From Trebouxia sp. TZW2008 (taxonomy: Eukaryota; Chlorophyta; Trebouxiophyceae; Trebouxiales; Trebouxiaceae), in contig BDIU01000205.1 in NCBI GenBank assembly GCA_002118135.1, positions 155,162-219,161 of the forward strand: a stretch of DNA of 64,000 bases, written 5' to 3'. Positions 4,742-63,896 of the stretch are shown one piece after another. Position numbers and translations under genes: made by a program. The notes beneath the pieces were generated by a model. It ran no database searches and had not been told where the DNA came from. It worked only from the letters and a program-made list of their open reading frames with translations. Each line of letters opens with the position of its first letter. Within the stretch, counting starts at the first letter, position 1.

Positions 4742-7700
4742 ATGGAAAGCACGACATGTTTGCAGGTTGTACAACCCACACCTGCATCAGGCAACATCAA
4801 CCCCAAGAAGATGAATGCATACATTCAGCAGCAGTCGCAAGCAGCAGCTAGAGCCGCCAAGACATCAGACCCAACTCCAATCCTGTTGCTCTACTTCCAG
4901 CGCATGGCGCAAGTGTGTCATGGCCTAGGCAGATGGCTTGACCACATACACATCAGCACCATTCTGTACGGCACAGCGACTGTCATAGTATCCATTGAAG
5001 CAGAGTGCAAAGACCGGCAGCTGCCTAATCTCGCCCAGCAAGAACTGAAACTGTTCCTGCGCTTCATGCTTGAACGCCTGCAACCTGTCCTGCCAGACAC
5101 CAGAGCAAGAGGAGCCAGCGGCATTCTGTGGTCTTTTGCCAAAATTGGTATCAACCCTGACACCTTGATCCCTGGTACTGTGGACAAAGTAGCACAGCAG
5201 TACACTCGCCATATCAGAACAGCCGTTGGGACATCCTATGCGTCCCTGCTTTGGGCTTGTGCAGAGCTGAATCTGGACCCCTGCAAAGGGCACCTGCTGC
5301 AGAAGGCTCTGGGGCAGTTGGAGCGCGCTGAGCTGTCACAGTACAAGGCCCACGAGCTGGCAAACATCGTCTACAGCTTAGCCAAGATGCCGACAATCCA
5401 GCCGTCAATCCCACTTCTCAATGGTCTGTGCCATTGCTTCCTCAAGCAGTTGCAGTCTAATGCGGAGAAGCACCAGCCCATTGCACAAGGGGTTGCCAAC
5501 TTTGCCTGGGCATTGGCAAAGCTCAAGTTTTTGCCGTCATGTGAGCTGACACGCGCCATGATGGACAGAATGCTCAGTCTCTGTCATGACACAGCGCAGC
5601 ATAGACCTAGTTCCCAGAACATCGCCAACTTCTTGCTCGGTTGTGCTGAGCTCAGAGTCACAATCCAGCCGGATGAAGCTCAAGCGCTCATGACTCAGCT
5701 CCTCGCATGCTCAAAGCTGCAAAACAAGCAGCTTCAGCAGCACCTGGTCAACTCAGCCTGGGCTCTAGCAGTCAGTGGGCAGCTGCACACACCCCTCTTC
5801 AGACAAATCCTGCAACGTGTGAGTGGCTTAGCCCGACCCTCCGTTCCTCTTCCTGAAGCCCACATGGACCAACTGCACCGCGCTCTACACAGATTACACG
5901 CCTCCTCAGATGCAAGCGTTGCAGACCAAACAGCGTGGCAAGAAGCTCAAGCAGAGCTGCAGCAGTTGGGTCCCATGCCTTTCACACCCGAGACGGTGTT
6001 GCTAGGCAAAGAGCAAGTGGCTGCTGCTCTAGAAGCCCTTGGCCTTGACTTCACCAGTGCAGAATCTGTGGAGGCCTATTGGGTGGATGCCATAGTCTGG
6101 CCGCAGACCCCTGAAGCGCCTCCATTGATTGCACTTGTTGAAGACCCAGATTGCTTCATGAATGAGCCAAGCAGGTAAGCCACCTTACGTGTTGACTGTA
6201 TCTGTGAAGGACCTTGATTGCTTTACAAATGAGTCAAGCAGGTATGCACCAGCCAGTACATTTGCCTAGCTGGCTGTTGATGAAGCGCTTCCACTGCTTG
6301 TGCTTGTCGAAGACACAGATTGCTTTGTGAATGAGCCAAGCAGGTAAAGCACAAAGAGAATGTCGACTGCAATTGTGGAAGACCGCAATTGCTTTGTGAT
6401 TGAGCTGAGCAAATAAAGTAAATAGTACATTTGCCTAACTGTCTGCTGATGAAGCACCTCCGCTGATTGTCTCCCTGGAGGATGCAGACTGCCGCATGAA
6501 TGAGCTCAGCAGGTAAATGGAGTGCATTGCCTAGCAGGCAGCCGATTGCCGCTTATACAGAAGCCGTCTTGAGCTGCTCTTGATGAGAGAAGACTCACAA
6601 CATGGCTCATGAGCATGTGCGTGTGTATTTTCTATCCTGTTCTGCCCAGCAGAGTTGTTTGTCAGGGCAGTGCAGATGTGCTTGCTGTTCAGTACTGCAG
6701 CTCATGCAATGTCGTCATGCAATGTCATAATGCTATGCTCACAGCATGCTCCTTGGTTTTTAGCATCAGTTCCATTTCCTCAACAGCTAACAGCAGCAGG
6801 ACAACAATGCAATGGCTTGCAGACAGAGGAACAGACACACAAGCATGTAGCCAATGCCTGGTGCTGCTTAATGCAGGCAAAACGTCTTTCATGCAATGAG
6901 CTGCATGATACTACAGCAGTACGCAGGCAATGACAGTTGATGAGCTGTAAGTCTGCAATGCCATTTTATCAGATGAGTCACATCTGGCTCCCTACCCCGG
7001 ACTGTAAATTCTATTGGTTGATTGATCGATTTTGTATCTGGCATCATCTCGAATGACTTTGGGCTTCCTCAATTATCAGCTTGCAGGTGTGTAGCTGCCA
7101 TGTTTGTGCCTCAAAGGCACAGAGCGTGCATTCACAATGACATGCACGCTGCTGTTTTGCCAATGGCCTGTTTTTCTGTCTGCAGGCTGGTCTCTGAGCT
7201 TCTGCTGTGTACAAGAGCTGTGGCAGCGATGCGCCATGCCACAATTTGTCTTACTGTAATCTTCTGTTCTGCGTTAGTGCAATTTCATTGCTTTTTGCTA
7301 ATGGCTTCTTCTTGCCTGCAGGCTGACGGGACGAGCAGTCTTTCGGCACCAACTACTTCAACAGCGCGGTCAGTTGGCTGTGGTCCCAGCCTTTGTGGCC
7401 AAAGGCACCCTGGAGCAGCTGACACACTACCTCAAGCCCAGGCTAGAAAGCGCTGCAGGAACCAGCCTGAATCCTTATAAATTGGTGCAAGCTGACAGCG
7501 GTGACAGCTTGCCTGGTGCAAATCACCCTGGAGCAGCTGACACAGTCAACGTACATGGTTCCAACATTTCTGATTTAAAGCACCATGGAGCAGTTGGTAC
7601 ACAGAGTGACAGTGGTCACAGCATTCCTGGTGCAAGTCACCCTGGAGCAGCTGACAAAGTGACTCATTGTGGTCACGGCATTCCTGGTGCAAGTCGACCT

Positions 7701-7955
7701 GAAGCAATTGGCACAGTGGATGATGGTGGCCACGGCATTTCTGGTTCAAAGTGCCCTGGAGCAGTTGCAACAGTGAATGATGGATGTCACGGCATTCTTG
7801 GCACAAATAATTTGGTAGCGGCTGATACAGTGCATCAAGCCCAGGCGGCAAAGCACTCCACTAGACACCCTGGAGCAATTGACACAGCTCTGCACACCTC
7901 AGCTGAAGGTTACCGTGGAAAATATTCCAAACGCCTCTCCGCATCTGCAATTTGA
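4742..7955 (+). CDS. OPR-repeat protein with RAP domain (organelle RNA factor)
   Basis: Exon 4742-6174 and exon 7322-7955 join in phase 2, giving 688 aa if ATG 4742 is the start. An acceptor TTTGCAG at 4766 leaves open that the true start lies further upstream. Helical repeats typical of octotricopeptide (OPR) proteins are visible: LLWACAELNLDP, NIVYSLAKMPTI, NFAWALAKLKFL, NFLLGCAELRV and NSAWALAVSGQL. The C-terminal RAP domain is split by the intron: YWVDAIVW... PPLIALVEDPDCF in exon 1, then LTGRAVFRHQLLQQRGQLAV in exon 2. OPR/RAP proteins bind specific organelle RNAs and control their stability, splicing or translation; the target here is unknown. After the RAP domain the frame stays open through seven 19-residue repeats to a stop at 7955. 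The intron carries four echo copies of the exon 1 end. Confidence 0.85.
6119..6520 (+). repeat. Donor-edge echo array of OPR exon 1 (dimeric, about 169 bp)
   Basis: The exon end coding for LVEDPDCFMNEPSR plus its GT donor occurs five times, with donor positions 6175, 6242, 6344, 6413 (mutated) and 6513. Spacings are 67, 102, 69 and 100, so the period is a dimer of about 169 bp. Only the first copy continues the upstream coding frame. Confidence 0.9.
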
Positions 7956-8275: not shown

Positions 8276-8290
8276 CTTTAGTCTGGGCTA

Positions 8291-13172: not shown

Positions 13173-16100
13173 ATGGGCAAATTCAAAGACAAGCTCAATA
13201 AGTTCACACGCTCAGTTGTCGGTCCGACCACTGCGCTAAAACAAAGAGATAGCTCAGAATTTGGGCCCTCAGGAGTCAATTCCTCCAGACCATTGCAAGA
13301 CAGTGCTGAACAAGATGTCGCTGCCATCAGCAAAGCATACAGGTAAGACACGTGTGACTTGACTATCTAAGTTGACCTAGCTTTGGTAAGCTGTCAAGAC
13401 TCGGATAGTAAGGCAAAAGATGACCAACCCCAACTCTCATGCTGCATGTTCCCTGTCATGATGCACCATGCTGTCACATTAATTGTGTGAGATGCTGCTG
13501 ACGACCACCTTCTTATGTGTTTCCTGCTTTTGTCATGACCCTCATACTTGATGTCTTGGCTGTTTAGCATCCTGAGTTGTGAACATCTCCTGAATAGATG
13601 CTCCTCTTCCCCTGCAGGGAAGTCCCAGCTGCAGTGGCAAAGACTGATGGCATGCCACGTGTCATGGCAGTCAACGGCGGCGCACTGCACTCAGACGTTG
13701 TATCACCAGCAGTCAGACCAGCGTTTGGTCAAGTACAGGACACTGCACTGCAGCATGACACCTCAGCTGCTGTTGCACAGCCACGCTCTCGCCGCCTGCA
13801 CACCAACAGCTCCATAGAGCAAGCAGAAACTGTAAGCAGCACAGAGCAATCAACCTTCGCCTCTGGTCCTCACAACATGCAGCGCAGCTCTGCAGAGACT
13901 GCGTCAGAGTTCTCGCCTTTTGGGGCTTCCCTTTCTGATGGCATTCCGCCTGCTTTCCACACTGGCAGCAGTGCACAATCTGCCAATAGGCTGGCGCCCA
14001 CTCCTGGCATGCGCTACACTGTCAACCTGGCCACAGGCAAGTCTAGTCTCTGGAGTCCTTCAGTCTGCAGTGCATTGCACAAGTCTTGGCTTGCTGGTTA
14101 GCACTGCACAATCTGCCAATAGGCTGGCGTACACTACACTGTCAATCTGGCCACAAGCAAGTTCAGTCATTGAGTATTTTGACTTTGCAATGCGCTGCTA
14201 AGGTTTGAGCATGACGTGCGGTACAATGTCGATTTTGCCACTGGCAACCTCAGTCACCAAGTGGTCTCTACTGCAATGGACTTCAAGTCTGGCCTCATGC
14301 AAGTTCAATCCTCATCTATATGAGTCTGTCCAGCGCATTGCAAACGTCAGGGCATCCTGATTTGCAATGCCCAATCTGCCGGTAGGATCGCGCCCACTTC
14401 TGGCGCATGCTACATTGTCAATCTGGCCACAGGCAAGTGCAGTCATGAAGTGTCCGCAAGGTGCATTGCGCTGTCAGTCTGACCACACACAAGCTCCTCA
14501 GCTGCCACAAGTTTCAGAGGGTAAGGTGGGTGGCCAGATAGGTTCCTTGCAGCGGTGACAACACAATGGTTGGGTAGTTACATACTGTGCAGCCAAGTCT
14601 TGGTCAAAACAAAGGCTGCCTCAAGCCACAGAGGGCGAGATAGAGGGCTTTGCCATTGTCAAGCGACATTAATCTGTGCAACAAAGTCTGGTTTGAGTCT
14701 AAGCCCGACACAACATGCTGACCCTTGGCTCCATGCTGTGCAGCCAAGTCTGGGTCAAGTTTGAGGCTGCCGCAAGACACAGAGGGTGAGATAGAGGGCC
14801 TGGTGGAGCAGCTACAGCAGGGCAGTGCAGAAGATCGCGGGCTGGCGGCTGAGAAGCTGTTTAACAAGGCTGCAGAGGACGAGCAGGCCCGACAAAAAGC
14901 TGCTGCTATTGGCGTCATCCAACCCTTGGTAGGCTCAATGGCTGGTTGCCACAAACAGAAAGTTTTTTGTTGAGATGAATGGCAGTCAAGGCGCAGTCAG
15001 GAAGCATCAGAGCCCTCGAAAGTGTCACAGCGCTTCTTGACATCCCGTTTGACATGCCTGTCAAGGATGCAAGCAGGACGCTTATTCATCTCCTCACCTG
15101 TTTTGGTTGTGAAATCGTCTCCATCAGCATCAGCTTGACAGCTGATAGCAGAGCGCAGGTACTGGGTAGACCACAAGATTCAGGTCGTTTCTGATCGTCT
15201 GACATGGACTAGAATTGTAGCATGTCTTCCACCAGACATTCCCAGCTGTGGGGGTGGATCCATCGCAAACGAGGCTAAAAGCCCATGCAGTGCAACATGT
15301 GAGCACATGTAAACCATGCGTAGTGTTAATTATGGTCCCACATTCCGGCACATGTGCTAGGTGTGTGTGGTCAAGTCCTGTCTCGCCAGGCAGGCTTGTT
15401 CTGAGCATCTGGCATACTGTGCATAGTGCATAGTGTCTGAGCACTAAGCTTATGACATGAAATGTATGATTGCAGTTTCGAGTGCTGCATGATGGCAAGG
15501 AGAGGGGCCGCATGTACGCTGGCTATGCGCTGAGCATCATCAGTTTGCACACACAAGCCACGCGCAATTTGTTGTCGCGCAGCTTCTCAAGTAGATTACA
15601 TGAATGCAGGTCCGACTGCTGCATGATGGCATGGAGAGCGGCCGCATGTATGCTGGCTATGCGCTGAGCAGCATCATCAGTTGGTGCACACAAGCTACAC
15701 ACACTTTGTTGACGCACAGCTTCTGAAGCAGATTACATGAATGCAGGTTTGACTGCTGCATGATGGCAAGGAGAGCGGCCGCATGTATGCTGGCTATGCG
15801 CTGAGCAGCATCAACTCGCACACACAAGCTACGCACAGTGTGTTGACGCACAGCTTCTCAAGCAGATTACATGCATACAGGTTTGACTGCTGCATGATGG
15901 CAAGGAGAGCGGCGGGATGTATGCTGGCTATGCGCTGAGCAGCATCAATCTGCACACACAAGCTACGCACACTTTGTTGACGCACAGCTTCTGAAGCAGG
16001 TTACCTATGTGCAGGTCCGACTGCTGCATGATGGGAAGGAGAGGGGCCGCATGTATGCTGGCTATGCCCTCAGCAGCATCATCTCTCCCCACACTGGCAT

Positions 16101-19100: not shown

Positions 19101-22100
19101 TATTTTCTTTGCAAACCCACAATGCTGTTGTTTTTGCAAAGATCGAGCCTACAGCAAAGCAAGCACAATGGTTTCTGCTGCAGGCCTTTGGGCTACGTTG
19201 CGTATGTGCCATGCTGTTGTCTACAAGCCCTTGTGTGCTGCGCCTGTCCTCTGCCTGCTGTTCAGCCTGATATTGCCCTACTAGTATAGCTTCTGCTTGG
19301 ACCATATGAAATTCAATCAAAGACATCACTTTGTTCACGCCACTGACATAATCTCTGACCCTTGGTTGCAGAACTGCACTGTTTGGGGATGACGTAACCA
19401 CCCTTGCTCTATTGCCATTTCAGAGAAGTTCCAACTGTTTTTCTTGGCCTTGTCCTGTTCTGCCTCAAACTGGGGATGTATGTATGCAGGGGTGTGCAAG
19501 GGAAGGGCCTGGTTGCCCCATTAGTCCACCTTTTAGTCAGCGGGGGCCCTTCTGATCAGGCCCGCGCTGCACGTGCCCTCAGCAACATGGCCACTGACTC
19601 CTCTGTCAAGGAGCAGATAGTTGCAGCAGGTATGGCATCGCCGACACACTGTGTTTTGCATGAGCCTTCTGCATTTGCACATTCTTGCTGCAAAGTAGCA
19701 TATAATTTCTGCAGGTTTGGCATCACCCTGCACCATGCTTTGCATGAGCCTTTTCTGCTTGAAGTGCATTTTGCGTGAGCGACACAGCTGACTCTTCTGT
19801 GAAGGAGCATAGTTGCTGCAGGTTCAACACTGTGCTGAGCAGGAGTCTTTCTTGTTCAGCCTACTTTTTGCCTGAACAGAGTTGCTCATGACCGCTTCTC
19901 ATGCCTTTGCTCAGATCTGCCACTGTGTAGCGCCTCGCTGTTCTGTCAGACTTGATCCAATGCAACAGCTGCGTTCATTTGTGCATTGTACATGTGTGCT
20001 GTGCACTCATCCTGCCCGCAGCAAGCACGTGTCATACCCTAGACATGCTGGTGCCCATCAATAGCCATAGCCACATGATTTTGAGCTGTTTGTATGCTGA
20101 CGGGTTTTGCATGATCTGCAGGTGCTGTGCCAATGCTGATTGAGATAGTGAAGGAGGGCAGCAGTGCAGTGCAGAGTGCTGTTGTAGCTCTGGAGAAGCT
20201 ATGCTCCCATGCGTCAGGTTGGCCATGCTCCTCTTGCCAAAATGCCCTTTCGGCTAGAGCTCTTTCCAACCAAGAATTTGATGTTGCTTATTGCTGTCAT
20301 TTGCCAAAGGCCCCAGAGCGCAGCTCCTGCATGGCATCAATCACCTCCTGTGCAAGGGTGTCAGCCAGCATCTGGAGCTCCTCTGCCTCACGCTAATGTT
20401 GCAATCCATCAGCACCTCAAGGAGAATCTATGACCCTGCCAAGCGCATGCAGAAGCAGATGCACTGTAGATTGTAGACCACCGGTCACAGTGCAATATTC
20501 ACAGGGAGTTCAGCAAGCCACCCTGGCAGATAATTCCCTGTTGCAGACTAAGTTTATGTAGCAGCTGCAAAACTGCTGAAAACACGCGTCAGCTGGGCTG
20601 CTGAGCAAGGCCAAATGTGTGCTTGCACGCAGCAAAGCCATGGTGAGTGGAGTAAGTGAAAGTGACATTCTTGCACTGCTGTTGACCACAGTTTCCTGGC
20701 TGTGTGCTTGCGGTTTGTGCAGTGTTGAAGCGTGGCGGCATTGCTGCGCTGCTGGGTTGAAGAGCAGCCCCTGCACGCTGACTCTACATGGCACAGCAGC
20801 TGCAACTCTGCTTGGCTGATGTCTTGGCTTTGCTGCTAAGTGATGCTGTTTGCATGCTTGCAGGTAGTGAAGCTATGATGAAGCATGGTGGCATTGCTGC
20901 ATTGCTGGAGCTGCTGAATGATGGTCACCTGGAGGCGTGGGCCAGCGCTACCCATACCCTTCACATGCTTTGTACCTCCACGCCCTCCGCCACCCTCATG
21001 ATCATGCAAGCAGGTATGATCCTTGACAAAGTCTTTGGGTGATGCATTTGCCTTGTGTCTTCAAAAGACTTGCTGAATAATGCTCATCTTGAGGCTTGGG
21101 CCAGCGCCACCCACACCCTACATATGCTGTGCACTTCCACACCCTCTGCAACCTCATGATCATGCAAGCAGATAATACGTCTCAGTCGATTTCTGAAGTG
21201 TATGTCCTGGCACACGCTGCCCTCCCCCCTCTGCTGAGCCCCTCGTGTCTCCGGCTGTTATAATTGTGCAAGCAGACATGACTGACGGTCATACATTGCA
21301 ATTGCAATGGTCATTAAGGTGAAGGGTTGTTTGCACCCATGATAAGTCAGCAAAAGAGATAGAGATAGGGAGAATGCATGCTGTGGTTAGCCAACAAGAC
21401 TGATTGCGTGTGTCAAACCCTGATCAAATATCGAGATGATGAAGGCAATCAAGAACAAACTTGAACACCTGCATACGATCCCTTTGCAAGGTGATTTGCT
21501 GACTGCAGGCGGAGTGACAGCACTGATGCATGCTTGTGCTGGCAGCCCAGCAGAGCTTCAGATTGCAACACTAACAGTCCTACGTCAACTGGTTGCTCAG
21601 CCAACAGGGCCTGACGCTTTCCTGGTGGCTCGAGCCATTCCTCTTCTTGCCACACTGCAGCACTCGCTTGTTGGGGAGATCAATGTTGCTGCTACCAAAA
21701 TTCTGGACAGAATCTCAGCAAGCAGTGGCTCTGCTGAAGAAGCTATTGCAGAGGAGCATTCAGTCCAGGTGCGTGGGCCTTTTTTACACGCTGTGCTGTT
21801 TTTCGTGCGAATGTGTCACAATGCAAAGCACTCATAGAGCTTGACATTCTGGACATACTTTCAGACAACAGTGGCTCTACTGATACAATCTTAGCCAGCT
21901 TTTTTCTGCTGAAGAAGCTGGTGAGCGTTCAGTTCAACTGTGTGAGATTTCTGCTGCATATGCCTTGCTTCTGCTTGTGCGACAGCTACAGCAAGCTTGA
22001 AACATGATTTCAGTTGCTGAATGCCACTTGCACAACAGCAACCGGCTGTAGGAAGCTCTCATTGCACTTTGCCAAAAGGTGTGAGGGGTAGAATTGAGAT

Positions 22101-25100
22101 GCGGGGGGTGGCAATGGGGGTGCTGCCCCCCCTGGAGGCTTTCAGCTCTTGCACTGGCCCTATCTTTACCCAACAAATGTCAGTTCCCAGAGGCAGGAAG
22201 CTGTAGGAAGCTCTGATTGTGCTTTGCAGGAAGGAGTAAATGACATGGTGGAGCAGCTACGGGTGGCTGTCGTGGTGCTGCCTACTCTGGAGGCTGCCTT
22301 CAGGCTTGTTCCCAGATCAGTCTTCCTTGTCTCTCATGCGGTAAGCATTCAATCAGAGTGTTGACTGCTTCCTGCAAAACATTGCATCATCTTTTGTACA
22401 GTGAGCAGCTGGTGCTCTTTCAAAGCAGCCTTCAAGCTTGTGCCCAGATTGGTCTTCCTCATCTCCCATGCAGTAAGCACCCAGTCCCTGCTTTGAGAGC
22501 CTTTTGGAACTTTGCAGCGGCTGCTTTCAGGCTTGTCTCCAGATCAGTCTACCTTGTCTTGCATGCAGTAAATTCCACATCCTGAAGTGCCTGGCACAAT
22601 AATAAGTGTTTCATATTTCTGTCTGCAATTTTGCTTAAAGCAGCCTTGTACGTACACCATGCAGTAAACACCCAGTCACGCCCTCTGATTGCTGCGAAAG
22701 TCTTTAATGTATTGCTTTTGGTGTGACTCGGCTGCTGTTTGCTCACATTAGCTTCATGCTGGCGTGAGATCCTTGCTGCCTGTGTTGCATCATCTTGCTA
22801 AATTCCTGCCTGCATTTGCTGCTGTCATGCCAGGCATGCGAAATTTGGAAGTCCTATGTGCTGACAGACTTTGGCTGGGTAATGCAGGCTGATCGTCTTG
22901 GTGCTGCTCCAGCTTTTGATGCTGCTGCTAAGATTGGCGAGTTACACACGGAGGCGCTTTCTCTACAGGTATCGTGCCGACTTTTTACAGCCTCGGATTT
23001 GGCAATGACTTTCATCCTGCATTACATGCCCTCAGTAAACACGACCTGTCTTGACTCGTCGTCTCAGAGCTAGCTTGAGCAGCATGTGATGCAGATCCAT
23101 GTTGCTTGCCACGTCAAGATTGCTGTGTCTGTGGTCAGTCTCCAATGCACTTGATGTTGGCAAGAGCAGTCTTTGGCATTGGCGCTTTTTACTTTGATCT
23201 GCAATGTTGTGTGTGAACTGTCCTGACTCTGGGTATGGATTGTGGCAGGCTCTAGGGCCTGAGGAGGGTCAAGCCTTCCTGGACATAGGGTCTGGCACAG
23301 GCTACCTCACAATGGTTGCAGCCAATTTGGTGGGCCATACTGGCAAGGCTGTGGGTCTTGAGGTAGGCAATGATAACTCCAGTCTGATGGTGACAAAGTT
23401 GTTTGCGCAGAGCCCTGACACCTACTCTGCTCGCTGACACATTGGTGACATGAATATTGCATCAGTCTCCAATCTCTAGGAAGACATGTACACAATGAGC
23501 TGTTGATGAACGTTCCTGTCTTCAATCATACTGTGCTGTCTTGGGCAAATGTCCCAAAATGGCATCATCGTCTTAGATTTGGGATCATGTTGATTGCTGA
23601 AATATCAGACCCACATAACCCTTTGCCCTCCTGCACAGGGATCCCAAGCACTTCAAGTTCTGCTGCTGCATTTGTGGCAAGGTGCATGCTTGGGTTGCCT
23701 TCACTTGTTGCCTTGCACAGATAAATGATGCTTTTCCGTACTGTACAGTTGGAGCAAGCAGCCGTAGAGTATGCCTGCAGCAAGCTGCACCAGGTGAAGA
23801 AAAGCCGCGGCCTGCCTGCACTGTCTGCCACGTTCCTCAGAGGCAACATTTTCAGTGAGCACTGGTGTGAGCAGCTGGGCGGACCCTTTGACTGCGTCCA
23901 TGTGGGTGGTAGCTGCTCTAAGGACAAGATCAACTACCTCATGCGCCTGGTCAAACAAGGTACACACCAATTCTGCTTTCTTGAAGCATTCCTGTCAACC
24001 TTCCTGTAGACATCGTGCTGGAAAGTGATCATGTTTGAGGATTGGTGCGAGCGGCTTGGAGGACCCTTTGACTGCGTTCATGTGCGCGGCACCTGCTCCA
24101 AGGACAAGATCGACTACCTCACGCGCCTGGTCAAGCAAGGTAGGCCAGCAAGCATCTGAGAATATGGCAGACGGCAGCATCAATGCTCGCATTATCTGTA
24201 TATGCAAGTCAGGCTGCTGATTGTTGTCCACCGTCAAGTCACTGACACTGTTGCTGTTGTGTTTATTTGAGACAGTACAGCAAGTCCTTTCACTGTACCA
24301 ACGCAAGCAGCAGCTACTGGAGAGGTCTCTGGAAGCTTCAAGCCATTTGTATAATGTGATATGCTGCGTCACATGTCAGCAGGTAGTCTTTGGTGTCAAG
24401 CATGGTTCAGTGTCAGCCCCACATCTGCTTATGTTATTGCTGCTATTGTCATCACGCATTTGTGCTGCTGCAGGCGGCAGGATGACAGTCCCGTGTGAAG
24501 GGCAGCTCCTGCTGATGACGCCTCCTTTTGATGGCCTGGTACCTGAGCCTATTGTGCTGGGCACAATGTCGGCTTGCCCTGGCCTGTTTGATGAACATGG
24601 CAAGCAGGTCAAAACTTCACTATGTTGTTGTTCAACTGTGTCGCTTGCCCACACATCAGTCGATGACGGCACAGGCAGCTTTGCATCCGTTGCACATCTG
24701 TGTATCAGCGAATTCTGAGTTATTGTCACAATGCTGTCAGTCAGTCAACTAATCCAACAAACAAGGTTGCTGTCTTTGGGTTTCAGCAGGAGCATGCACA
24801 ATTGACACATACCAGTTGAAACATGTTCTGCTCACAATTATGCCAGTATGCGAAATGCATTGTCTCAAGCCCACACAAAGTTGTGCCATTATGCGAAATG
24901 CATTGTCTGAAGCTCACATGAATTGGGCCCTGACAGTTTGGCAAACGCTACAGATGGCAGAGGAATGGTATGGCAACGTGACACAGCAGTCGTCACAGCA
25001 GTCCACCACCATGCCTTGGCAACCCCCCACCCCTATCAAGCACCCCTGGTCTGAGGGTAGCATCACCCCCCTCACAGACGCTGCAGGCGACCACCATGCC

Positions 25101-28100
25101 TCTGGCAGGTGAGCTTGCATGTCAATAATCAACCACAATGGTTGCATAATTGCAGCCTTCACAGTGCTTAGATGCATGCTATTGTTACTTGGTAGTGCTG
25201 CAAGCAACCCATACCAAGCACTACTGGTCTGGCGTGAGGGTAGCATCACCCCCCTGACAGATGCTGCAGGGGATCATCATGCCTCAGGCAGGTGAGCTGA
25301 CAGCATCTTGCATGCATACTTACAGCATTAGACCATCATTTGTGTGCTGAGGTGCATATTGATGCAATTTTGGTGCATCAACATCATGCCTGCACATGTG
25401 CACCCCTGCGTGCATCACTGCCTGCAGCCTGCTTCAGCATGGACACTTTGTCATGGGTCAGGAGATGTCATCTCAGGGACCAGTGGCAACTGTGACATCC
25501 TGTAGGACGGTGCTTTACGAGGGCATAATGTTGCAGGGCGCTTCAGCTGAGTGACCTGTCAGTTGTCACACCTGTGAACAAAGTCTCATGGGTCTTGCAG
25601 AACCGTGTTGCATGGGGGCAGATTGCCAGGAGGGCCCCCAGCTGAGCACCTGCCTTCTGACCAGCTGGGCCGAGAGGCGCGCTTTGCCCATGTGTATGAC
25701 CAGGGCAGTGCTCCAAGCGATGCGACTTCTGATGAAGCTGAAGGGGAGGCACATGGCTGGCTCATTGCCAGGTCAGTGAGAAACTTGTCATCTTCCCAGC
25801 GCACAAGGCTCTCAGACAATTTGACTGCTTTGCAATGGTTGTCTGTATAGCATTGTTCCAGATTCAGGGCCACTCAGGCTGCCTAAGGTATTCATTTGAG
25901 CATGTCGCAGGCAAGCCTGGTCTGTCTTGTGCAGAATGCAGTGCACTTGGCATCGCATTGCTGGGGGCACTGCCTTGATTATACATATGTATATGGCGCA
26001 GCAAGCGAGCCTGGCCCAACATGCAAGGGACCCTTGATGGAACTGAAAAGGGAGGCACACAGCAAAACCTGGTGTGATTTCATTGTCCATTCAATGGTGT
26101 GATTTCGTTGTCCATTCAATGATGTGCTATTGCAGGGAGGACATCAGCATTTGCCGTACCTCAGAGAACAAGAAGTGCCGCCTTGGAGAGGGTGGTTTTG
26201 GAGTGGTGTACAAAGCCCTTATGAATGGGGTGGATGAGGTTGCAGTCAAGCTGGTGAAAGCTGACAAACCCACCAACAAGGAGTTGCTCCTGTTCCACAA
26301 AGAGGTACAAAAGCAGCGCCAGGATGCTGTGGGCGGTTGTGAAACAAGCCTGTTGTTGTTTGTGAAACAATGCTGCTTGATTACTACACACGTACTTTGT
26401 TGGATCAAAAATTGGTCAAGGCTAACAAGCTCAGCAACAAGGAGCTGCCCCTTTTCCACAAAGGTGTGTTTGCAAAGCCAGCATGCAGCAAGCAGCTGGT
26501 TCAGTTCAAGCCCTTGGTAGGGGTCAAGGATGTTTCACAAGCGCTTCATTGTCTCCACACATAAAAACTCCCATGCTGGGTTGGCAAAGCAGTTGCACTT
26601 GAGCACCTCAGGCAGGTGCACACAATACATTTGTCCATAGAAAGTCGGCTCTGTGATGAAGGTCTGCGCAATCTCATGGCTATCTTCAGCCTTGTGATCA
26701 GCAAAGCAGGCTTTATTAGTCTTCAGTTTTGACTTTGCGCTCACAAACTGGTCAAAAAGCGAAACCTGGCTGTGCAAGCAAATTCGTGCAGTATTGATGG
26801 TCAATCTGAGACTCAGACCGCCTAACTAGTGACACCAAAGACCCCTAGTCTTGGTCAAAGTAGCTGAAGTGAACAGCTTGAGCAACTGAACCCACTTCGC
26901 TCCAAGGCTAGGAGGCTTTGATGTCGCTTCATTGACAAGTGGATGTCACAACCGCAATGAGGTGGCTGTAGAGAGTCTCAAGAAACCCTGCTGCGCAAGC
27001 ATATAGGTACAGTGGAAACCCATGTCACTGTAGGACCCAGACTGCCTATGTAGTGACATGAAAGGCTCCTGGCCTGCTGGCAAACTAGCCGACCTGAACA
27101 GCTTGAGCGACGGCAGCTTACTTGCGTTCAGGTCAGGAGCTCCCTGTGACACTTCATTGGCAATTTGGGTGTTGCACTGGCAATGAGGTGCCTGCAGCAG
27201 GCCTGTGAGCACAGCAGGGTCCAGGTCCAGACCAATTATTCAGTGTGCAATGATTTCAAAACTTGCCATAATCTCTTGTGTTCAAAAATGGCTTCGTGAG
27301 GTTACTGCATGCACCTGCTTGTGTTGCACTAATCACCTTGACTGCCAGCTCTCACATTCTTGGGGACAAATGCTGTCTGTGGCTGTGTATAGACCAACAG
27401 CTGATATATCAATTTTCCCAGCTGTGCAGATCAGACAAAAATTGCTTTGATCGAACAGAATTTGCTGAAGCCCAGATCTGCTGCCCCCAATTTTGCAATG
27501 AGTGGACGGGAAAGTGTGCCACTTGCAGGTCCGGGTGTTGCGCACACTGCACCACCGCAACATTGTGCAATTTTATGGAGCATGCCTGGAGCCCAGCAGC
27601 ATGTTCTTTGTCACAGAGCTCATGAAGGTAAACACATTGCTCATTCTCAAAGCCGTCTTACAATGGGATGTTGCATGATTATCCATATCACTCATCTATC
27701 CAGATTTGCATTGTTTTTTATAGAGCTCAGCAAGGCAGGCTGTAACATTGCAAAGCATGCTTCCTGTGGTCTTTTCATAGATTGCAAAAGGTCCTGGCGC
27801 CACTTGTCTGCATGGCCTTTGCAATGACTGCTATCATTGTGTTTGATGCTTGAATATCTCAACTGGTGTGTGTAGAGCTGTTCTCCTTTGTTATTGCTGT
27901 ATAAGCTGTGTCTGTTTCATCTGTTTTTGTGCGCTGCCTCATGCACACAGTTTTGTGATGATGCTGCCATGCAATTGTGTCTGCCTGCCAGTCAGTGATG
28001 GCAATCCTGCTTGTTTCTTGCTTCATCGTAAGCACTTGGGATGAATGCATCACGATTTCAGCATCCATGTTATCCAGATACCAGAATGACGCTATGACCT

Positions 28101-30299
28101 ATCTTGCGTTGATTCTGAATGTCATTGTTATGCCTGTGACAGGGGTGGGAGCCTTCCGCAGCCATCCTGACAGTAAGTGCTCGGAGCGCCTGATCAACAT
28201 GTCACATGAAGAGGGTGGTCAAGTCATATTAAAAATGTGATCAAAATGGACAAAACTGATTTACTGCAAATTCAATGTGAAGCTTAGTGTTGTGCCTATG
28301 GCAGGGAGGAGATCTGTACAGCGCCCTCCGGAACCACCCTGACACCATGCGCTGGGAACGCTTGGGCCGCAAGGTTGCGCTGGACGTCGCTCTTGGCATC
28401 AACTACCTCCACACCAGGCAAGCACCTCTTTGTCACAATGCCAGCAGAGCTGTAGCTCTGTCAAGACCTGTGTCAAGACCTGTCAAGACATCTGCTGAAG
28501 CCTTCTCACCCTGCAGCAGACTCTGGAGTATTTGTATTCACGTTGCTTCTGCTCATCTGCCTGACTTATGCTTGTTTGACTAAAAGTCTACTCAAACATT
28601 TCGCTTTTGATTGTCTCCTCATGAATTGACGCTTACATGCAGGCGGCCCCGAATGATGCACAGAGACCTGAAATCCCCCAATGTGCTACTGAGCGAGGAG
28701 GGCGTGGCCAAGATTGCAGACGTGGGCATGGTGCGGCCCCAGGTGCAGGAGCTCGTCACTGCCCAACCCATCATGACTCCCCTATGGGCTGCCCCTGAGG
28801 TGACAACACTGCTCTGAAACCATCAAACAGCGTTCATGATCATGACATGTTCAACTACGGTATCACTGCTCAGGCCCACCCATCACAACACCCCCTTAGG
28901 CCCCCTAGGAAGTGACAAGCCTGCTTTGAAAGCAGATGTGATCGCAAACTCAGTCATGCATGCAGTTGGGAATGCAGCTGATCCACCGTGACCCCGCTCT
29001 TGGCTGCCTTTGAGGTATCAAGTTTGCTGTCAAACCATATGTGATGGTGATGAGCATGCCTGGTCCATCATGACCATGCTGGGCTTTCCCTGACATGTCC
29101 AGCCTGTTGTGAACCATCTGTAATGTCATCAACTCTGGAACTGTTTTGTACATTTCAAAGCACCAATCTTGATAGAGTAGTGACGTGATTTTGCAGGTGG
29201 TGAGGCATGAGAAGGCCAGTGTGAAGGCTGACATGTGGAGCTACGGCATTCTGGTTTGGGAGCTCATCAGCGACCAGGACATCACCACACTGCAGCCTCT
29301 CGCCATTGCCCAAGCCATGCAGGTAAGAACAGTAACAACTATAAACAGTACCAACAATGATGTCAACCAAAGTGTAGTAATGACACTAATGTCACCTGGG
29401 GACAGCTTAACCTGTCCCCAGGTGAGCTCAACTTAGTATGTTCAGCGGCAGCCATGATGCAGCTTGCAAAAGTCAGCAACATATATCACGACTGTTTCTG
29501 TGATGTTAAATGTCGTCGTTTCATCAACTTGATAAAGTTGACCACCATTGTGCCATGTGTCAGCACAAGTGTCAGGTGTGCATGGCCTGTGTCCTGTCTT
29601 GCCAGGCCAGCTTGTTATTGGCGTCATGACAAAGATAAGGGACATCCAGGTCCAAGGCATTCTTTTACACAGCAAGCCAAGCTTTTGTTTGGTGCTGGCA
29701 GCAAAGCCTGTCGTTGAGCTGCTGCTTCGTAGATGCGCTTTGCAATTCCAATCAGCGCACTTCAAGTGGAACTGCAGAGCACACGTATTGAGCGGTTGCT
29801 CAATGACGGCCGAATGTCAGCAGGGTGTGAGGGTTTACCTGGTGCTGGGCAGAGAAATCGATGCTCGTGAATGTTGATCTAGCTCCATTTGATATTCTGC
29901 AGTACCGTACAGATGTTTGGCCTCAAACACCACCCATGCTCAAGATGGCAAGCGGCTGTGGGGTCCGCTGGTTGACACACTACACTAGTCTCACTGTGCA
30001 GCTGCATGCTTTTCACAAAACAGCACTCCCTGTGCAAATTGTCTGCAACTCACAGCTTTGTTAGTGCATAGGCAAACATTTGGGTCCTCAACACATGTCG
30101 CTTGCAACCCATTTGCTCAACTATTGCGAAGGCAGGCTTAGATATGCTGCCATGTGTGCAGGCTGGCACCACAAAATCACTCCAGCTGCCAGTGGACTGT
30201 CCCCCAGTGGCAGCGCGTATCTTCACTGAGTGCACACACACCGAGCCAAACTGCCGGCCTTCAGCACAGCAAGTTGTGGAATGGCTGCGGCAGTCATGA
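13173..30299 (+). CDS. ARM-repeat / PCMT-like methyltransferase / TKL-like protein kinase fusion
   Basis: 26 exons: 13173-13342, 13618-14036, 14744-14928, 16015-16161, 16659-16801, 17471-17615, 17990-18106, 18499-18579, 18969-19090, 19490-19629, 20122-20217, 20864-21013, 21509-21768, 22230-22340, 22888-22968, 23249-23362, 23749-23959, 24474-24607, 24954-25108, 25601-25771, 26136-26304, 27529-27627, 28305-28417, 28643-28799, 29197-29322 and 30162-30299. All phases agree; 3954 nt, 1317 aa. Residues 1-250 are low complexity. About 250-725 are ARM-type helices (e.g. LVPIITLLDCNDN, GIAALLELLNDG). About 726-942 match protein-L-isoaspartate methyltransferases, with SAM motif LDIGSGTGYLT, PFDCVHVGG and GGRMTVPCEG. 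From about 1051 there is a kinase: LGEGGFGVVYKA, VAVK, HRDLKSPN, DVG in place of DFG, DMWSYGILVWE. Introns 2 and 23 have GC donors. ARM parts usually scaffold proteins, so a repair- or damage-linked signalling role is only inferred. A split into several genes is unlikely, given the phases and the absence of internal stops or starts. Confidence 0.88.
14037..14743 (+). repeat. Double echo array in ARM-kinase intron 2 (GC-AG intron)
   Basis: The end of exon 2 (codes for SANRLAPTPG...NLATG with donor CACAG/GCAAGT) recurs at 14105-14165 and 14365-14440, with a weaker copy near 14215-14260; two copies keep GCAAGT. The acceptor and start of exon 3 (GTGCAG/CCAAGTCT) recur upstream near 14590-14655, with a degraded copy near 14672. 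So one intron has donor echoes on its left and acceptor echoes on its right. Confidence 0.88.
15357..15413 (-). mobile_element. LINE 3' fragment in ARM-kinase intron 3
   Basis: The minus strand encodes DAQNKPAWRDRT followed by a CACACACACC-type end, as in the LINE at 62330-62820. Confidence 0.7.
15476..16090 (+). repeat. Five-copy 134-bp acceptor-edge array before exon 4
   Basis: The acceptor TGCAG and about 60 coding bases for RLLHDGKERGRMYAGYALSS start at 15476, 15610, 15747, 15881 and 16015; spacings are 134, 137, 134 and 134. Only the last copy continues into a full exon with a donor. The intronic part of the unit (ACACAAGCTACGC ... TTCTGAAGCAG) is also repeated. Confidence 0.95.
17070..17615 (+). 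repeat. Duplicated exon 6 of the ARM-kinase gene
   Basis: The real exon 17471-17615 has a near-complete copy at 17291-17417, 180 bp upstream, with an intact acceptor and open frame (VLQGEVVSAGAVPG) but without the last seven codons and without a phase-compatible donor. A third, badly decayed copy is near 17077-17130. Confidence 0.88.
19755..19830 (+). repeat. Echo of exon 10 end
   Basis: GACTCTTCTGTGAAGGAGCATAG with GTTGCTGCAGG matches the end and donor of exon 10 (19590-19635). The frame is broken. Confidence 0.7.
20715..21175 (+). repeat. Echoes on both sides of exon 12
   Basis: Upstream, 20718-20768 copies the start of exon 12 (GTGGCGGCATTGCTGCGCTGCT). Downstream, 21066-21172 copies its second half (CTTGGGCCAGCGCCACCCACACC ... 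CATGATCATGCAAGCAG) with the donor lost. Confidence 0.85.
21835..22690 (+). repeat. Echo arrays around exon 14
   Basis: 21845-21920 copies the end of exon 13. 22050-22160 copies the start and middle of exon 14, upstream of the real exon (22230-22340). Three donor-edge copies follow it near 22410-22475, 22515-22575 and 22640-22670, the last two with GCAGTAAA-type remnants of the donor. Confidence 0.85.
24036..24145 (+). repeat. Echo of PCMT exon 17 second half
   Basis: This segment repeats the end of exon 17 (WCEQLGGPFDCVHV to LVKQG) about 181 bp downstream, still open in frame and with a GTAGGC donor. It lacks an acceptor, so it would not be spliced in. Confidence 0.88.
25200..26065 (+). repeat. 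Echoes of linker exons 19 and 20
   Basis: 25205-25295 copies the end of exon 19 (GAGGGTAGCATCACCCCCCT ... CAGGCAGGTGAGC) 183 bp downstream, donor kept. 25960-26060 is a decayed copy of exon 20 (GGGAGGCACA region). Confidence 0.75.
26400..26470 (+). repeat. Echo of kinase exon 21 end
   Basis: The segment encoding KLVKANKLSNKELPLFHKG copies the end of exon 21 (KLVKADKPTNKELLLFHKE) with the donor region altered. Confidence 0.85.
26810..27205. repeat. Intronic tandem pair, about 230 bp apart
   Basis: 26815-26965 and 27045-27200 share blocks such as GAACAGCTTGAGC, CTTCATTG and GCAATGAGGTG. They lie in kinase intron 21 and match no coding exon I can see. Confidence 0.6.
28138..28205 (+). repeat. 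Echo of kinase exon 23 start
   Basis: GGGAGCCTTCCGCAGCCATCCTGACA followed by GGAGCGCCTG resembles the exon 23 start (GGAGATCTGTACAGCGCC ... CACCCTGACACC ... TGGGAACGC), 165 bp upstream of it. Confidence 0.6.
29572..29630 (-). mobile_element. LINE 3' fragment in ARM-kinase intron 25
   Basis: The minus strand contains AACAAGCTGGCCTGGCAAGA and CATGCACACC, matching the LINE 3' end. Confidence 0.65.
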
Positions 30300-37500: not shown

Positions 37501-39455
37501 TGCTTCTTCATGATTGCAGGTGGTGTGTCTATGGGGGACAAGGATTTCATCAAGCCTCTGTTGGAGCGGCATGGCAAAGTGCACTTTGGCAAAGTAAAGA
37601 TGAAGCCTGGCAAGCCCCTTACCTTTGCCACCATTGACCTCCCGTCATCAAGGTATCTTGCCAGTGAACATGTCATAAAAGCCTGATACAGGTCTAGACT
37701 AGGGCATAAGCATGCAAATGCCAGATGCTGTCTCTGCTCCTGGAAAATTAGTTTGTGATGCTGCAGCTCACAGCACATGCTGGTGTTTGGCTCTCCCAGC
37801 GACCGCGTCAGCTGTTGTGCATGCCTTGCTGCTTGGATCATGTGCAAAGCCTGATGAATGTTTTGGCTTTGGAGTCAGCGCTTAGCATCCATGACGGTGG
37901 TTTTTGCTCAAAGCATGACTTTGTCTTGCTGCTGCTCGAAGCGCTTGTCCTGTCACTGTACTTATATGCAAACTCTAGTACAGCTTCTGGAATCAGCACT
38001 CAGTATAAAAATGGTCATTGTTGTCTTGAAGGACTACTTTGTGGTGCTGCAGTTCACAGCGCATGCTGGCCTTTGGTCCTCCTGGCATCCTGTCAGCTGT
38101 TGGTTTGCATATCTTGTTGCTTAACCGGAATGCAAAGCCTGGTACCGTCTGTGCCATGGAAGTCATGCGCGCGCAACAAATGGCCACTGCTATCTTGAAG
38201 GACTACGTTGTGTTGCTGCAGTTCAAAGCGCATGCTGGTATTTGGTCTTCCTGGCAATCCTGTTAGCAGCATTGTCACCTTCAACTTGGTGGTGCTACCA
38301 GCTTTGCGTAAGCTGGCAGGCTGGCAGGTATGCCCTCACTGCTCTCAGTGTGTCTTTACATGTGTGTGTGTCTGGTTCTCACAATCTGTGATGCAGCTAT
38401 GCATATGATCTGGGCATTGAATATCTGTGGGCTTGCGCTGCCTCCCATTGTGCATGTGCATGTCTCTGACACATTGTAGTCCAGCGATGCACAAACTGAC
38501 AGCAGTTCATGACTCGAGGTCACCTGAACATGAGAGTATCTGCGACTCCATTCACACCTAAGCTCGATGCATATGCCGCACAATTCCGCACAGACTGTAG
38601 CCAATGAGAGCAATTTGAAAATGCATATGCCTAGATGCCTCCCCGTATGTGTACCAGGAATGGTGTGTTTCTTACTGTATGCTATTGAGCCATGTACATG
38701 AGAGCTGAGAAGTGAGCACCTGTGTTGATCTGACCCATGGTCTTCTTATATGCGTTTACGTACATAGTGCATGCAAAACAACCCATAGCTAGCATGCAGC
38801 ACAGCTATGCAGCAAGCCAGCAAGCTATGTGACAGTCGTAGTTGCATGCAGCACCCAAAACCAAGAAGAGTGCATGTCAGGACTACCCAGGACTTGAAGT
38901 TAGATCCAGAGCGACCAGAGTACCACAGAGCAACTGTTCATTGGACAAGGTGAAGCATGCTTGTGAAATATGACTTCTCAACACAATAGCCCAAGCACAG
39001 CCATGATGTGAGCGTGACATGCGTGACACCCATCCAAAATGGTGCAATGTTCAGCAATCAAGCATGCACGTTTGCTTTTGTGCTCAATGCACAATGCTGA
39101 TTTTGCATAACGTGCCAGTGTGGCTTTGATCAGATGCCAATAATGCTTGTCATCTGTCTCACCTTCAAGGCAATTGTGCTGCAGGCCGCCGAAGGCTTCA
39201 GACAACCACATTGGTGGTGAGTTTTCCGCTGTCAGCACAGGCGGACAGATCAGCAGTAGGTTGCTCAGCATGCGCTCTGCAAATGCTCTGCTTGAATTAC
39301 CAGCAGCCAAAGGGACAATTCCAAAAGGCAGCATGGTATCTGCACTGCTCATACAAGACTTAGGAATGATGCCGACTTCAGAACATCTGACACTGACAGC
39401 CTCTCCTGCTCATTATGAATATGAAGCTAAGTTTGAAGGGTTTTCCCAGGACTGA
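31569..39455 (+). CDS. CNX1E: Molybdopterin molybdenumtransferase (Mo insertase, MoeA/Cnx1 E domain)
   Basis: Ten exons: 31569-31763, 31986-32103, 32769-32869, 34104-34241, 35437-35537, 36469-36605, 37520-37652, 38222-38327, 38852-38949 and 39185-39455. Phases agree throughout; 465 aa. It matches the E domain of plant Cnx1 and gephyrin, which inserts molybdate into adenylated molybdopterin to finish the Mo cofactor. Diagnostic stretches in order: [112 protein letters not shown] and [18 protein letters not shown]. No G domain follows, so it is a stand-alone E protein as in other green algae. Nearly all introns contain echo copies of adjacent exons. Cytosolic, by family knowledge. Confidence 0.95.
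32104..32360 (+). repeat. Donor-edge echo array of CNX1E exon 2
   Basis: The end of exon 2 (SVAYITTG plus donor) recurs: splice positions are 32104 (real), 32183, 32269 and 32352, spacings 79, 86 and 83. The last has ACAGGC instead of ACAGGT. Confidence 0.9.
32483..33115 (+). repeat. Duplicated CNX1E exon 3 and its tail echoes
   Basis: A copy of exon 3 starts at 32483, 286 bp before the real one (32769-32869), and reads [20 protein letters not shown] before degenerating. Copies of the exon end (AAGCGCATTAAGATTG and similar) follow at about 32957 and 33077. Confidence 0.9.
33168..33222 (-). mobile_element. LINE 3' fragment in CNX1E intron 3
   Basis: The minus strand contains GCTGGCTGGCAAGACAC and CATACCTAGC, matching the LINE 3' end. 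Confidence 0.55.
33493..34104 (+). repeat. Acceptor-edge echo array of CNX1E exon 4
   Basis: Copies start at 33493, 33637, about 33787 and 33937, and the real exon at 34104 (spacings about 144-167). They copy [19 protein letters not shown]; three of the four upstream copies keep a TTGCAG or TGCAG acceptor. Confidence 0.92.
34370..34630 (+). repeat. Donor-edge echoes of CNX1E exon 4
   Basis: Three decayed copies of the exon 4 end (GCTGAGATTGGCATCTTAGC ... GTCAAG/GT) lie near 34395-34440, 34465-34502 and 34573-34622. Confidence 0.8.
35003..35062 (-). mobile_element. LINE 3' fragment
   Basis: A shorter second fragment next to the 35070-35190 one; the minus strand encodes [12 protein letters not shown], the end of the same LINE protein. 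Confidence 0.75.
35070..35190 (-). mobile_element. LINE 3' fragment in CNX1E intron 4
   Basis: On the minus strand it matches the last about 75 bases of the LINE at 62695-62780 (encoding [14 protein letters not shown], then ATGCTGGCAAGTG) and ends in a TTATTATTG tail. It is in antisense orientation to CNX1E. Confidence 0.85.
35625..36605 (+). repeat. Higher-order echo array before CNX1E exon 6
   Basis: An echo of the exon 5 end and donor (GCCAACAGGTAG) lies at 35632-35650. Copies of the exon 6 start ([19 protein letters not shown]) then begin at 35888, 36008, 36124, 36238 and 36347, and the real exon at 36469. Copies alternate between short (about 40 exon bases: 35888, 36124, 36347) and long (about 90 bases: 36008, 36238, 36469), so the true period is a dimer of about 230 bp. 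An extra decayed long-type segment is at 35755-35870. Confidence 0.92.
36735..36935 (+). repeat. Donor-edge echoes of CNX1E exon 6
   Basis: Two copies of the exon 6 end (CTAGAGAAAGCTATCAGCCA ... GTCACCACAGG) lie at 36757-36820 and 36870-36932. Confidence 0.88.
37304..37520 (+). repeat. Duplicated start of CNX1E exon 7
   Basis: A copy at 37304-37394 with a CTGCAG acceptor reads [19 protein letters not shown] and then breaks. The real exon starts 216 bp downstream at 37520. Confidence 0.92.
37761..38222 (+). repeat. Acceptor-edge echoes of CNX1E exon 8
   Basis: Copies of the exon 8 start (GCTGCAG/TTCAAAGCGCATGCTGG) lie at about 37760-37830 and 38046-38115, before the real exon at 38222. The copies are frame-broken. 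Confidence 0.85.

Positions 39456-50425: not shown

Positions 50426-63896
<13,471 letters not shown>

What the first reader, a model, noticed from the sequence alone, without database searches (positions are those of the whole stretch)
6119..63500. Pervasive tandem 'exon-edge echoes' inside introns
More than 25 introns or gene flanks hold one to five decaying copies of the neighbouring exon's border with its splice site, always next to the parent exon and, with one exception, on the same strand. Affected genes include OPR, AlkB, ARM-kinase, CNX1E, the secreted protein, Ca2+-ATPase and probably the CBM-like gene. Units are about 70-230 bp and include intron sequence, so they arose as DNA tandem duplications, not by retroposition. 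This looks like a genome-wide mode of intron growth that I do not know as described.
Basis: partly seen in the sequence, partly recalled or inferred. Interest (0 to 1): 0.92.

Follow-up and report, generated by a model that had tools for sequence, protein, structure and literature searches.

The report
Tandem duplications filling algal introns
In this lichen-alga genome many introns are padded with old, decaying copies of neighbouring DNA, about 100-200 letters apart, which often include an exon's end; they look like leftovers of many small local DNA duplications rather than a system aimed at exons.

Summary
The window lies in a 68.5 Mb genome that I place in the green alga Trebouxia. In three genes mapped with Trebouxia proteins, 37 of 98 exon borders (36 usable) have a copy in their own adjoining intron (27 of 49 introns), against 0 of 1960 shuffles, 0 of 98 reverse complements and 0 of 1104 comparisons with other introns.

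It is not specific to exon edges. Intron interiors are duplicated as often (82 of 220 tiles against 38 of 98 edges; in 189 kb elsewhere 124 of 631 against 94 of 492), intergenic DNA less (24 of 191; window 2 of 50). The four loci searched are private. Offsets cluster at 100-200 bp (99 of 177, median 141). In a separate scan 35 of 36 copies run through the splice site and none holds a whole exon. They show no coding constraint. Young copies are scarce (4 of 145), suggesting a past wave.

Single cases and the likely process are known (PMC4974935, PMC2671141); I did not find this density in print. RNA use, breakpoints and relatives' introns were not testable.

The parts
6112..6516 (+). OPR exon 3' border (6112-6178) and two intronic copies at 6281-6347 and 6450-6516, step 169
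   Evidence: pairs; 58/67 and 49/67 identical
13968..14469 (+). ARM-kinase exon 13618-14045 donor border and copy 14364-14469
   Evidence: exon part 63/78, GT kept; 2 copies
14581..14799 (+). acceptor border of exon 14744-14928 and upstream copy 14581-14648
   Evidence: offset 151, exon part 47/56, AG kept, intron part only 12 nt
15428..16094 (+). 134-bp tandem array (4.6 copies at 15466-16085) ending at the acceptor border of exon 16044-16154; one place in the genome
17279..17595 (+). acceptor border of exon 17471-17615 and upstream copy 17279-17415
   Evidence: offset 180, exon part 108/125, AG kept
19568..19774 (+). donor border of exon 19490-19629 and copy
   Evidence: offset 89, exon part 42/57
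20696..21174 (+). exon 20864-21013 with copies of its acceptor side (20696-20755) and donor side (21071-21174)
21706..21982 (+). donor border of exon 21509-21768 and copy
   Evidence: offset 176, exon part 43/56
22020..22575 (+). exon 22230-22340 with copies of both borders on either side
23856..24142 (+). last 104 nt of exon 23749-23959 with donor, and copy 24036-24142; one place in the genome
   Evidence: offset 180, 89/104, GT kept, intron unrelated beyond GTA
25029..25298 (+). donor border of exon 24954-25108 and copy with an equally strong donor
26252..26486 (+). donor border of exon 26136-26304 and copy
   Evidence: offset 161, exon part 42/51
28768..29067 (+). donor border of exon 28664-28831 and weak copy (parent border uncertain)
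   Evidence: exon part 42/63
32064..32408 (+). CNX1E donor border of exon 31986-32103 and a short array of copies
   Evidence: 84-bp unit at 32077-32352; 3 copies
32467..32852 (+). CNX1E acceptor border of exon 32769-32869 and upstream copy 32467-32567
   Evidence: exon part 72/84
32822..33222 (+). CNX1E donor border of exon 32769-32869 and copy 33048-33222
   Evidence: offset 226, exon part 39/47
33422..34168 (+). CNX1E acceptor border of exon 34120-34241 with upstream decaying copies
   Evidence: 3 copies
34192..34625 (+). CNX1E donor border of exon 34120-34241 and copy 34568-34625
   Evidence: offset 376, exon part 40/50
35507..35729 (+). CNX1E donor border of exon 35437-35537 and copy 35617-35729
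   Evidence: offset 110, exon part 28/31
35782..36849 (+). CNX1E exon 36469-36605 with seven acceptor-side copies upstream and two donor-side copies downstream
37265..37606 (+). CNX1E acceptor border of exon 37520-37652 and copy
   Evidence: exon part 74/87, AG kept
37943..38267 (+). CNX1E acceptor border of exon 38222-38327 and copy
   Evidence: offset 164, exon part 40/45, intron part 83/108
52240..52736 (-). Ca2+-ATPase exon 52677-52871 donor border with intronic copies
   Evidence: 3 copies
53256..53557 (-). Ca2+-ATPase exon 53202-53378 acceptor border and copy 53433-53557, overlapping the palindrome 53509-53593
54131..54379 (-). Ca2+-ATPase exon 54274-54453 donor side and copy 54131-54225
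   Evidence: offset 154, exon part 85/95
55216..56044 (-). Ca2+-ATPase exon 55380-55544 with copies on both sides (parent borders uncertain)
56346..56930 (-). Ca2+-ATPase exon 56636-56758 with copies of both borders
   Evidence: exon parts 56/62 and 48/53
57363..58188 (-). Ca2+-ATPase exon 57736-57927 with copies on both sides; one place in the genome
   Evidence: 57363-58183 searched
58572..58902 (-). Ca2+-ATPase acceptor border of exon 58531-58668 and copy
   Evidence: offset 145, exon 77/96, intron 60/87
58956..59451 (-). Ca2+-ATPase donor side of exon 59324-59606 and copy 58956-59220; one place in the genome
   Evidence: (59081-59451 searched)
59574..59742 (-). Ca2+-ATPase acceptor border of exon 59324-59606 and weak copy 59669-59742
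   Evidence: exon part 22/33

Best explanation
The introns, and to a lesser extent the intergenic DNA, of this Trebouxia genome carry the remains of many short local direct duplications. A stretch of mostly 100-200 bp was copied next to itself, probably when a repair or replication polymerase switched back a short way on the same strand and re-copied it. Where the stretch lay was random with respect to genes. Copies inside an exon or holding a whole exon changed the protein and were lost. Copies crossing one exon border left the original splice site and exon intact, so the extra piece became intron and persisted. Most copies are old; the process seems to have slowed. Since then the copies have drifted without coding constraint. 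Exon borders stand out because their parent is held still by selection, so their copies stay recognisable longest. Shown: the duplications, their locality, direction and length range in the sample, privacy of four loci, lack of coding constraint, and absence of whole-exon copies in the mapped genes. Inferred: template switching or repair as the maker, random placement, loss by selection, splicing around the copies, and the past wave.
For: Direct over inverted 195 to 18 within 3 kb, shuffles 0. Private: four duplicated stretches each hit one place in the genome (that search skips very common words). Edges not special: edge 38/98, intron interior 82/220, exon interior 1/9; elsewhere 94/492, 124/631, 13/142, intergenic 24/191, window intergenic 2/50. 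Offsets: 99 of 177 primary duplications at 100-200 bp, median 141, 14 of 177 at 260 or more; medians 133, 145 and 144 in the three identity classes. In ten of the 13 copies that stop at the border (the other three have offsets 225, 287, 376) exon length and spacer vary inversely, r about -0.8 by hand, because the offset stays within 148-180, as a duplicated unit of set length predicts. 35 of 36 copies pass the splice site, 0 of 36 contain the whole exon, against about 6 expected from random placement (0.049/0.258 x 32). Mismatches by codon position 96/737, 98/734, 189/741: the pattern of a free copy beside a parent constrained at positions 1 and 2; 17 of 21 indels break frame; 5 of 304 changed codons are stops. 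Splice dinucleotide intact in 24 of 35, as exon-part identity squared (0.683) predicts.
Against: 139 of 304 changed codons are synonymous, against 27% if the copy alone drifted; I ascribe the excess to the parent's own synonymous changes, which I did not measure separately. The exon-derived part of the copies decays more slowly than the intron-derived part: a simulation needs an intron rate about 2.3 times the exon-part rate to reproduce the 10 of 16 copies (offset 140-185) that stop within 18 nt of the border, while equal rates give 0-6% at exon identities of 0.80-0.84. I cannot say why; conversion by the parent exon or lower mutability are possible. Counted as events, edges exceed random placement (32 of 46), explained only by a detectability model with chosen rates. 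Duplication is uneven, absent from 3 of 21 pieces. Breakpoint microhomology could not be read because ends are eroded. No RNA was available; 10 of 24 copies with intact dinucleotides score as high as or higher than the parent site, so some may be used.
Confidence: 0.75

Rival explanations
1. Exon-edge-directed copying: a mechanism linked to transcription or splicing preferentially duplicates exon borders into the adjoining intron.
For: 32 of 46 primary duplications in the three genes involve an edge, against 26% by random placement; one of the 12 classed intron-only (20696-21174) also flanks an exon on both sides. 13 of 36 copies end within 18 nt beyond the border.
Against: Tiles of intron interior are duplicated as often as edges, and intergenic DNA is duplicated too; noncoding-only pairs (37) show similar offsets to exon-touching ones (109) (median 141 against 154) and the same share of incomplete units (0.46 against 0.44) (ab initio exons in the sample); detectability alone gives an edge share of 0.38-0.88.
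Confidence: 0.08
2. The copies are functional alternative or decoy exons (mutually exclusive exons, poison exons, splice-site decoys) kept by selection.
For: 24 of 35 keep the splice dinucleotide, 10 of those 24 score at or above the parent; the exon part decays slower than the intron part; one copy (donor side of 20864-21013) has 12 of 15 differences at third positions.
Against: No copy in the mapped genes holds a whole exon (0 of 36); 17 of 21 indels break frame and stops are 5 of 304 changed codons; splice dinucleotides are retained no more than drift predicts; by eye, the homologues P0241, P0121 and P0001 contain the copied segments once.
Confidence: 0.1
3. Unequal exchange or slippage between repeats already present keeps making and homogenising local arrays (satellite-like concerted evolution).
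For: Some loci are multi-copy arrays, e.g. the 134-bp array at 15466-16085 and seven copies before exon 36469; homogenisation would explain slow decay of the exon part.
Against: 21 of 37 edges have a single copy; nearly identical pairs are rare (4 of 145 below distance 0.10), whereas ongoing homogenisation should give many; it does not explain the first duplication.
Confidence: 0.07
4. Transposons, Introner-like elements or retroposed RNA put the copies there.
For: A dispersed family does exist in the window (34960-35180, 40 places scored of 439 candidates).
Against: The four duplicated stretches searched occur at one place only; copies lie beside their own parent (0 of 1104 in other introns) and 23 of 36 include more than 18 nt of intron.
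Confidence: 0.02

Closest known systems
Repair-mediated duplication by capture of proximal DNA (PMC2671141; abstract, passages, sections 7 and 8 seen)
   Different: 824 probable cases in the human genome, found by interrupted transposons; here 177 primary duplications in 253 kb, mostly adjacent and same-strand. Their length is the copied sequence, mine is the offset. Breakpoint signatures not testable here.
[quoted passage not shown]
   Same: A tandem duplication crosses an intron-exon border and its splice signals are copied.
   Different: There one event makes a new intron; here many events lie within existing introns and no new intron was shown.
Introners (PMC9860276, passages seen)
   Same: DNA added within genes becomes intron.
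   Different: Introners are families of highly similar introns scattered over many genes; the loci searched here are private.
Tandem exon duplication / mutually exclusive exons (PMC9013439, PMC9741552; search listing only)
   Same: Neighbouring exon copies with splice sites.
   Different: Copies here are partial, carry the one border, and break frame.

Membership tests
Repair-mediated (proximal) duplication | donor and copy on one chromosome within 5 kb | tested here: met
   195 of 204 direct self-BLAST pairs lie within 3 kb; but 20 of the 21 pieces searched are at most 10 kb long
Repair-mediated (proximal) duplication | short length, median about 147 bp, max about 620 bp | tested here: met
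   offset median 141, 99 of 177 at 100-200 bp, 3 of 177 at 600 or more; offset rather than copied length
Repair-mediated (proximal) duplication | microhomology, filler or deletion at breakpoints | not testable with these tools
   ends eroded; no empty site from a close relative available
Intron gain by tandem duplication | duplicated unit crosses a border and copies splice sites | tested here: met
   35 of 36 copies run through the border in mapped genes, 48 of 57 in ab initio models
Intron gain by tandem duplication | a new intron appears at the duplication | not tested
   no intron positions of relatives were available
Introner / transposable element | dispersed multi-copy family | tested here: not met
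   one genomic place for four of four loci searched
Mutually exclusive / duplicated exons | complete exon copy with both splice sites | tested here: not met
   0 of 36 in mapped genes; 3-4 of 57 in ab initio models of the sample
Mutually exclusive / duplicated exons | reading frame kept | tested here: not met
   17 of 21 indels in the exon part not a multiple of 3
Retroposed (RNA-derived) copies | introns absent from the copy | tested here: not met
   23 of 36 copies align over more than 18 nt of intron

The most novel reading that the evidence does not exclude
A lineage-wide wave of duplications about one nucleosome (or one Okazaki fragment) long, produced by a particular failure of lagging-strand replication or repair in an ancestor of this Trebouxia, was a main engine of intron lengthening in the genus, and left thousands of exon-border copies whose intact splice sites still act as decoys that tune splicing. 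The slow decay of their exon-derived part would then be the trace of that use or of repair by the parent exon.
Probability: 0.2. Interest if true: 0.8.

Novelty: new variant of a known kind. Interest (0 to 1): 0.58.

Why it matters
How introns get longer without transposons is an open question. Here 34% of intron bases (and 35% of exon bases, as parents) in three genes lie in detectable local duplications, and introns with copies are longer. Because the parent exon is nearly fixed, each copy is a datable, orientated record that drifts freely: it gives the duplication length spectrum, the age profile and relative decay rates from one genome. It also warns annotators: my own gene finder put several copies into proteins as exons.

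Tried and rejected
Exon-edge specificity: not supported, on tile frequencies and detectability. Transposons and Introners: rejected for four loci. Coding function of copies: not supported. A separate mechanism for copies that stop at the border: I first could not explain them, then found that faster intron decay reproduces them; 3 of the 13 also show displaced intron homology. mRNA-templated copying: no support, since copies include intron sequence. Breakpoint microhomology: looked at in 15 high-identity pairs, not readable. One search was flawed (it aligned sequences to themselves) and was discarded; one search crashed after printing and was repeated as with a higher intron penalty and a code guard. 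Ten literature searches (two searches returned no paper): no listed title or abstract start described this in Trebouxia or as a general mode of intron growth; subscription journals are largely outside that library. The Trebouxia A48 genome paper has no occurrence of 'tandem' in its main text.

Full report
Where it is. The window is part of a 68.5 Mb genome in 527 contigs. The Ca2+-ATPase, CNX1E and ARM-kinase queries find as best named relatives Trebouxia sp. C0004 and C0010, C0005, and C0009, at 71-84% identity; size and G+C fit a published Trebouxia genome (69.1 Mb, 49.7%; PMC12712428, passages; sample 0.49-0.53). I read it as a species of Trebouxia, a lichen photobiont; the species is not identified. 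Two of the best relatives (P0001, P0241) come from contigs of 3,654 and 5,359 bases that encode 1,012 and 1,314 residues, which suggests spliced RNA (inference).

Method. I fetched 20 further stretches (189 kb) of the same genome and trained a splice-aware gene finder on all 253 kb. In the window I replaced its models for three genes by spliced alignment to P0241, P0121 and P0001, giving 52 parent exons and 49 introns after dropping pieces under 40 nt. The joined alignments still hold 2, 1 and 1 in-frame stops, which I put down to imprecise borders. Gene models in the sample stretches are ab initio only and may include copied exons.

Observation. 37 of 98 borders have a copy in their own adjoining intron; 0 of 1960 shuffles, 0 of 98 reverse complements, 0 of 1104 comparisons with other introns. 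27 of 49 introns are affected: 13 of 25, 6 of 9 and 8 of 15 in the three genes. Affected introns are longer (median 669 against 390.5 nt), partly because longer introns offer more room. One of the 37 is weak (7 aligned nt), leaving 36.

Not only edges. With 100-nt tiles and 500 nt of search on either side, direct copies are found for 38 of 98 edges, 82 of 220 intron interiors and 1 of 9 exon interiors in the three genes; for 94 of 492, 124 of 631 and 13 of 142 in the sample, and for 24 of 191 intergenic tiles there and 2 of 50 in the window. Over all tiles: 481 of 2513 direct, 22 inverted, 1 shuffled. So the process acts on noncoding DNA generally, more visibly in introns than between genes. 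It is uneven: direct pairs cover 15.5% of the sample, 20.9% of the window, up to 40% of one stretch and 0 in three of 21 pieces.

Size and locality. Reducing alignments (offset 20 or more, low complexity removed) to the smallest offset per locus gives 177 primary duplications in 253 kb, median offset 141, 99 at 100-200 bp. Simulated detection falls for short units (at distance 0.25: 0.22 for 50 bp, 0.82 for 150 bp, 1.0 for 300 bp), so the low count below 100 bp is partly bias, but the drop above 200 bp is not. The resemblance to nucleosome (about 147 bp) and Okazaki-fragment scale is recalled knowledge and a lead only. Human repair-mediated duplications have median 147 bp (PMC2671141). Four loci searched through the whole genome each gave one place.

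Geometry. In a separate scan with whole exons (36 copies in the window, a partly different set), 35 of 36 pass the splice site and 0 of 36 reach the exon's far border; in the sample 48 of 57 pass it and 3-4 of 57 contain the whole exon, with less reliable models. A tandem unit must include everything between its source and its end point, so passing the border is expected. Random placement puts a whole exon in about 5% of units and one edge in 26%; with 32 edge events about 6 whole-exon copies would be expected, and their absence fits removal by selection.

Decay. In 30 copies with an unambiguous parent frame (of 37; 6 ambiguous, 1 too short), mismatches at codon positions 1, 2, 3 are 96 of 737, 98 of 734, 189 of 741; 21 indels, 4 of them multiples of three; 139 synonymous and 165 other codon changes, 5 of these to stop; a copy drifting alone would give 27% synonymous and 3% stop changes. 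Positions 1 and 2 then show the copy alone drifting, position 3 both copies; this accounts for the synonymous excess but is an interpretation. Splice dinucleotides are intact in 24 of 35 where aligned; exon-part identity 0.827 squared is 0.683. Nothing here requires selection on the copies. Against a fully simple picture, the exon-derived part drifts slower than the intron-derived part. Thirteen of 36 copies stop within 18 nt beyond the border although their exon parts are 85% identical. Equal rates predict 0-6% of such copies at exon identities of 0.80-0.84; an intron rate about 2.3 times higher predicts 53%, aligned fraction 0.33 and intron identity 0.688, against 10 of 16, 0.31 and 0.688 observed for offsets 140-185. 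The rates were chosen to fit; the cause is open.

Edge excess. As distinct events, 32 of 46 are edges, 12 intron-only (one of these flanks an exon on both sides), 1 starts inside an exon, 1 is a short edge. Simulated detectability gives expected edge shares of 0.38, 0.46, 0.47, 0.63, 0.60 and 0.88 for different rates and age profiles; observed 32 of 45 without the exon-internal one. The excess therefore does not require edge targeting, but the simulation does not exclude a mild preference.

Age. Of 145 primary duplications with offset of at least 60 and alignment of at least 50, distances between copies in steps of 0.05 number 1, 3, 8, 21, 22, 23, 30, 23, 9, 5, while detection falls steeply beyond 0.3. 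In a steady state the youngest classes should not be the emptiest. I infer a past wave or a slowdown; collapse of near-identical copies in assembly could remove the very youngest class.

Verdict. A real and striking genome trait, correctly seen as DNA tandem duplication, but not shown to be exon-edge-specific. Its parts are known singly; the density in one genome, the length range and the record it leaves are what is new, as far as ten literature searches (listings) show.

Noticed in passing
window 34960-35180 (also 15339-15409, 29547-29625, 33147-33211, 50927-51023, 62711-62804): A short dispersed repeat (pieces of about 60-145 bp) on both strands, with 40 scored places genome-wide out of 439 candidates; the window has no tRNA or Rfam match.
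   Followed up: partly
L007:8889-9081, L007:4101-4274, L015:5825-6176, L016:2278-2444, L020:647-1309, window 53509-53593 and others: 17 of 18 local inverted pairs are centred palindromes (34-663 bp, 55-95% identical) with little or no spacer, i.e. probable local inverted duplications; the one searched (L007:8889-9081) occurs at one place.
   Followed up: partly
window 13173-30299: One gene model encodes ARM repeats, a PF01135 domain (methyltransferase, name recalled) and a protein kinase together; relatives named Trebouxia, Myrmecia and Symbiochloris list the same three kinds of domain in one protein.
   Followed up: no
window 17291-17383, 24062-24139, 35888-36372, 55733-56083: My ab initio gene finder included exon-border copies as exons, giving proteins with repeated segments; published annotations could hold the same kind of error (not checked).
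   Followed up: no
window 44123-44286: A young 54-bp triplication (95% matches), about 600 bp beyond the predicted end of the iron-permease (FTR1) gene at 44885-47175.
   Followed up: no
window 25207-25298, 24036-24142, 26413-26486 and similar: 10 of 24 copies with intact splice dinucleotides score at or above their parent site, so they are strong decoy sites on paper.
   Followed up: partly
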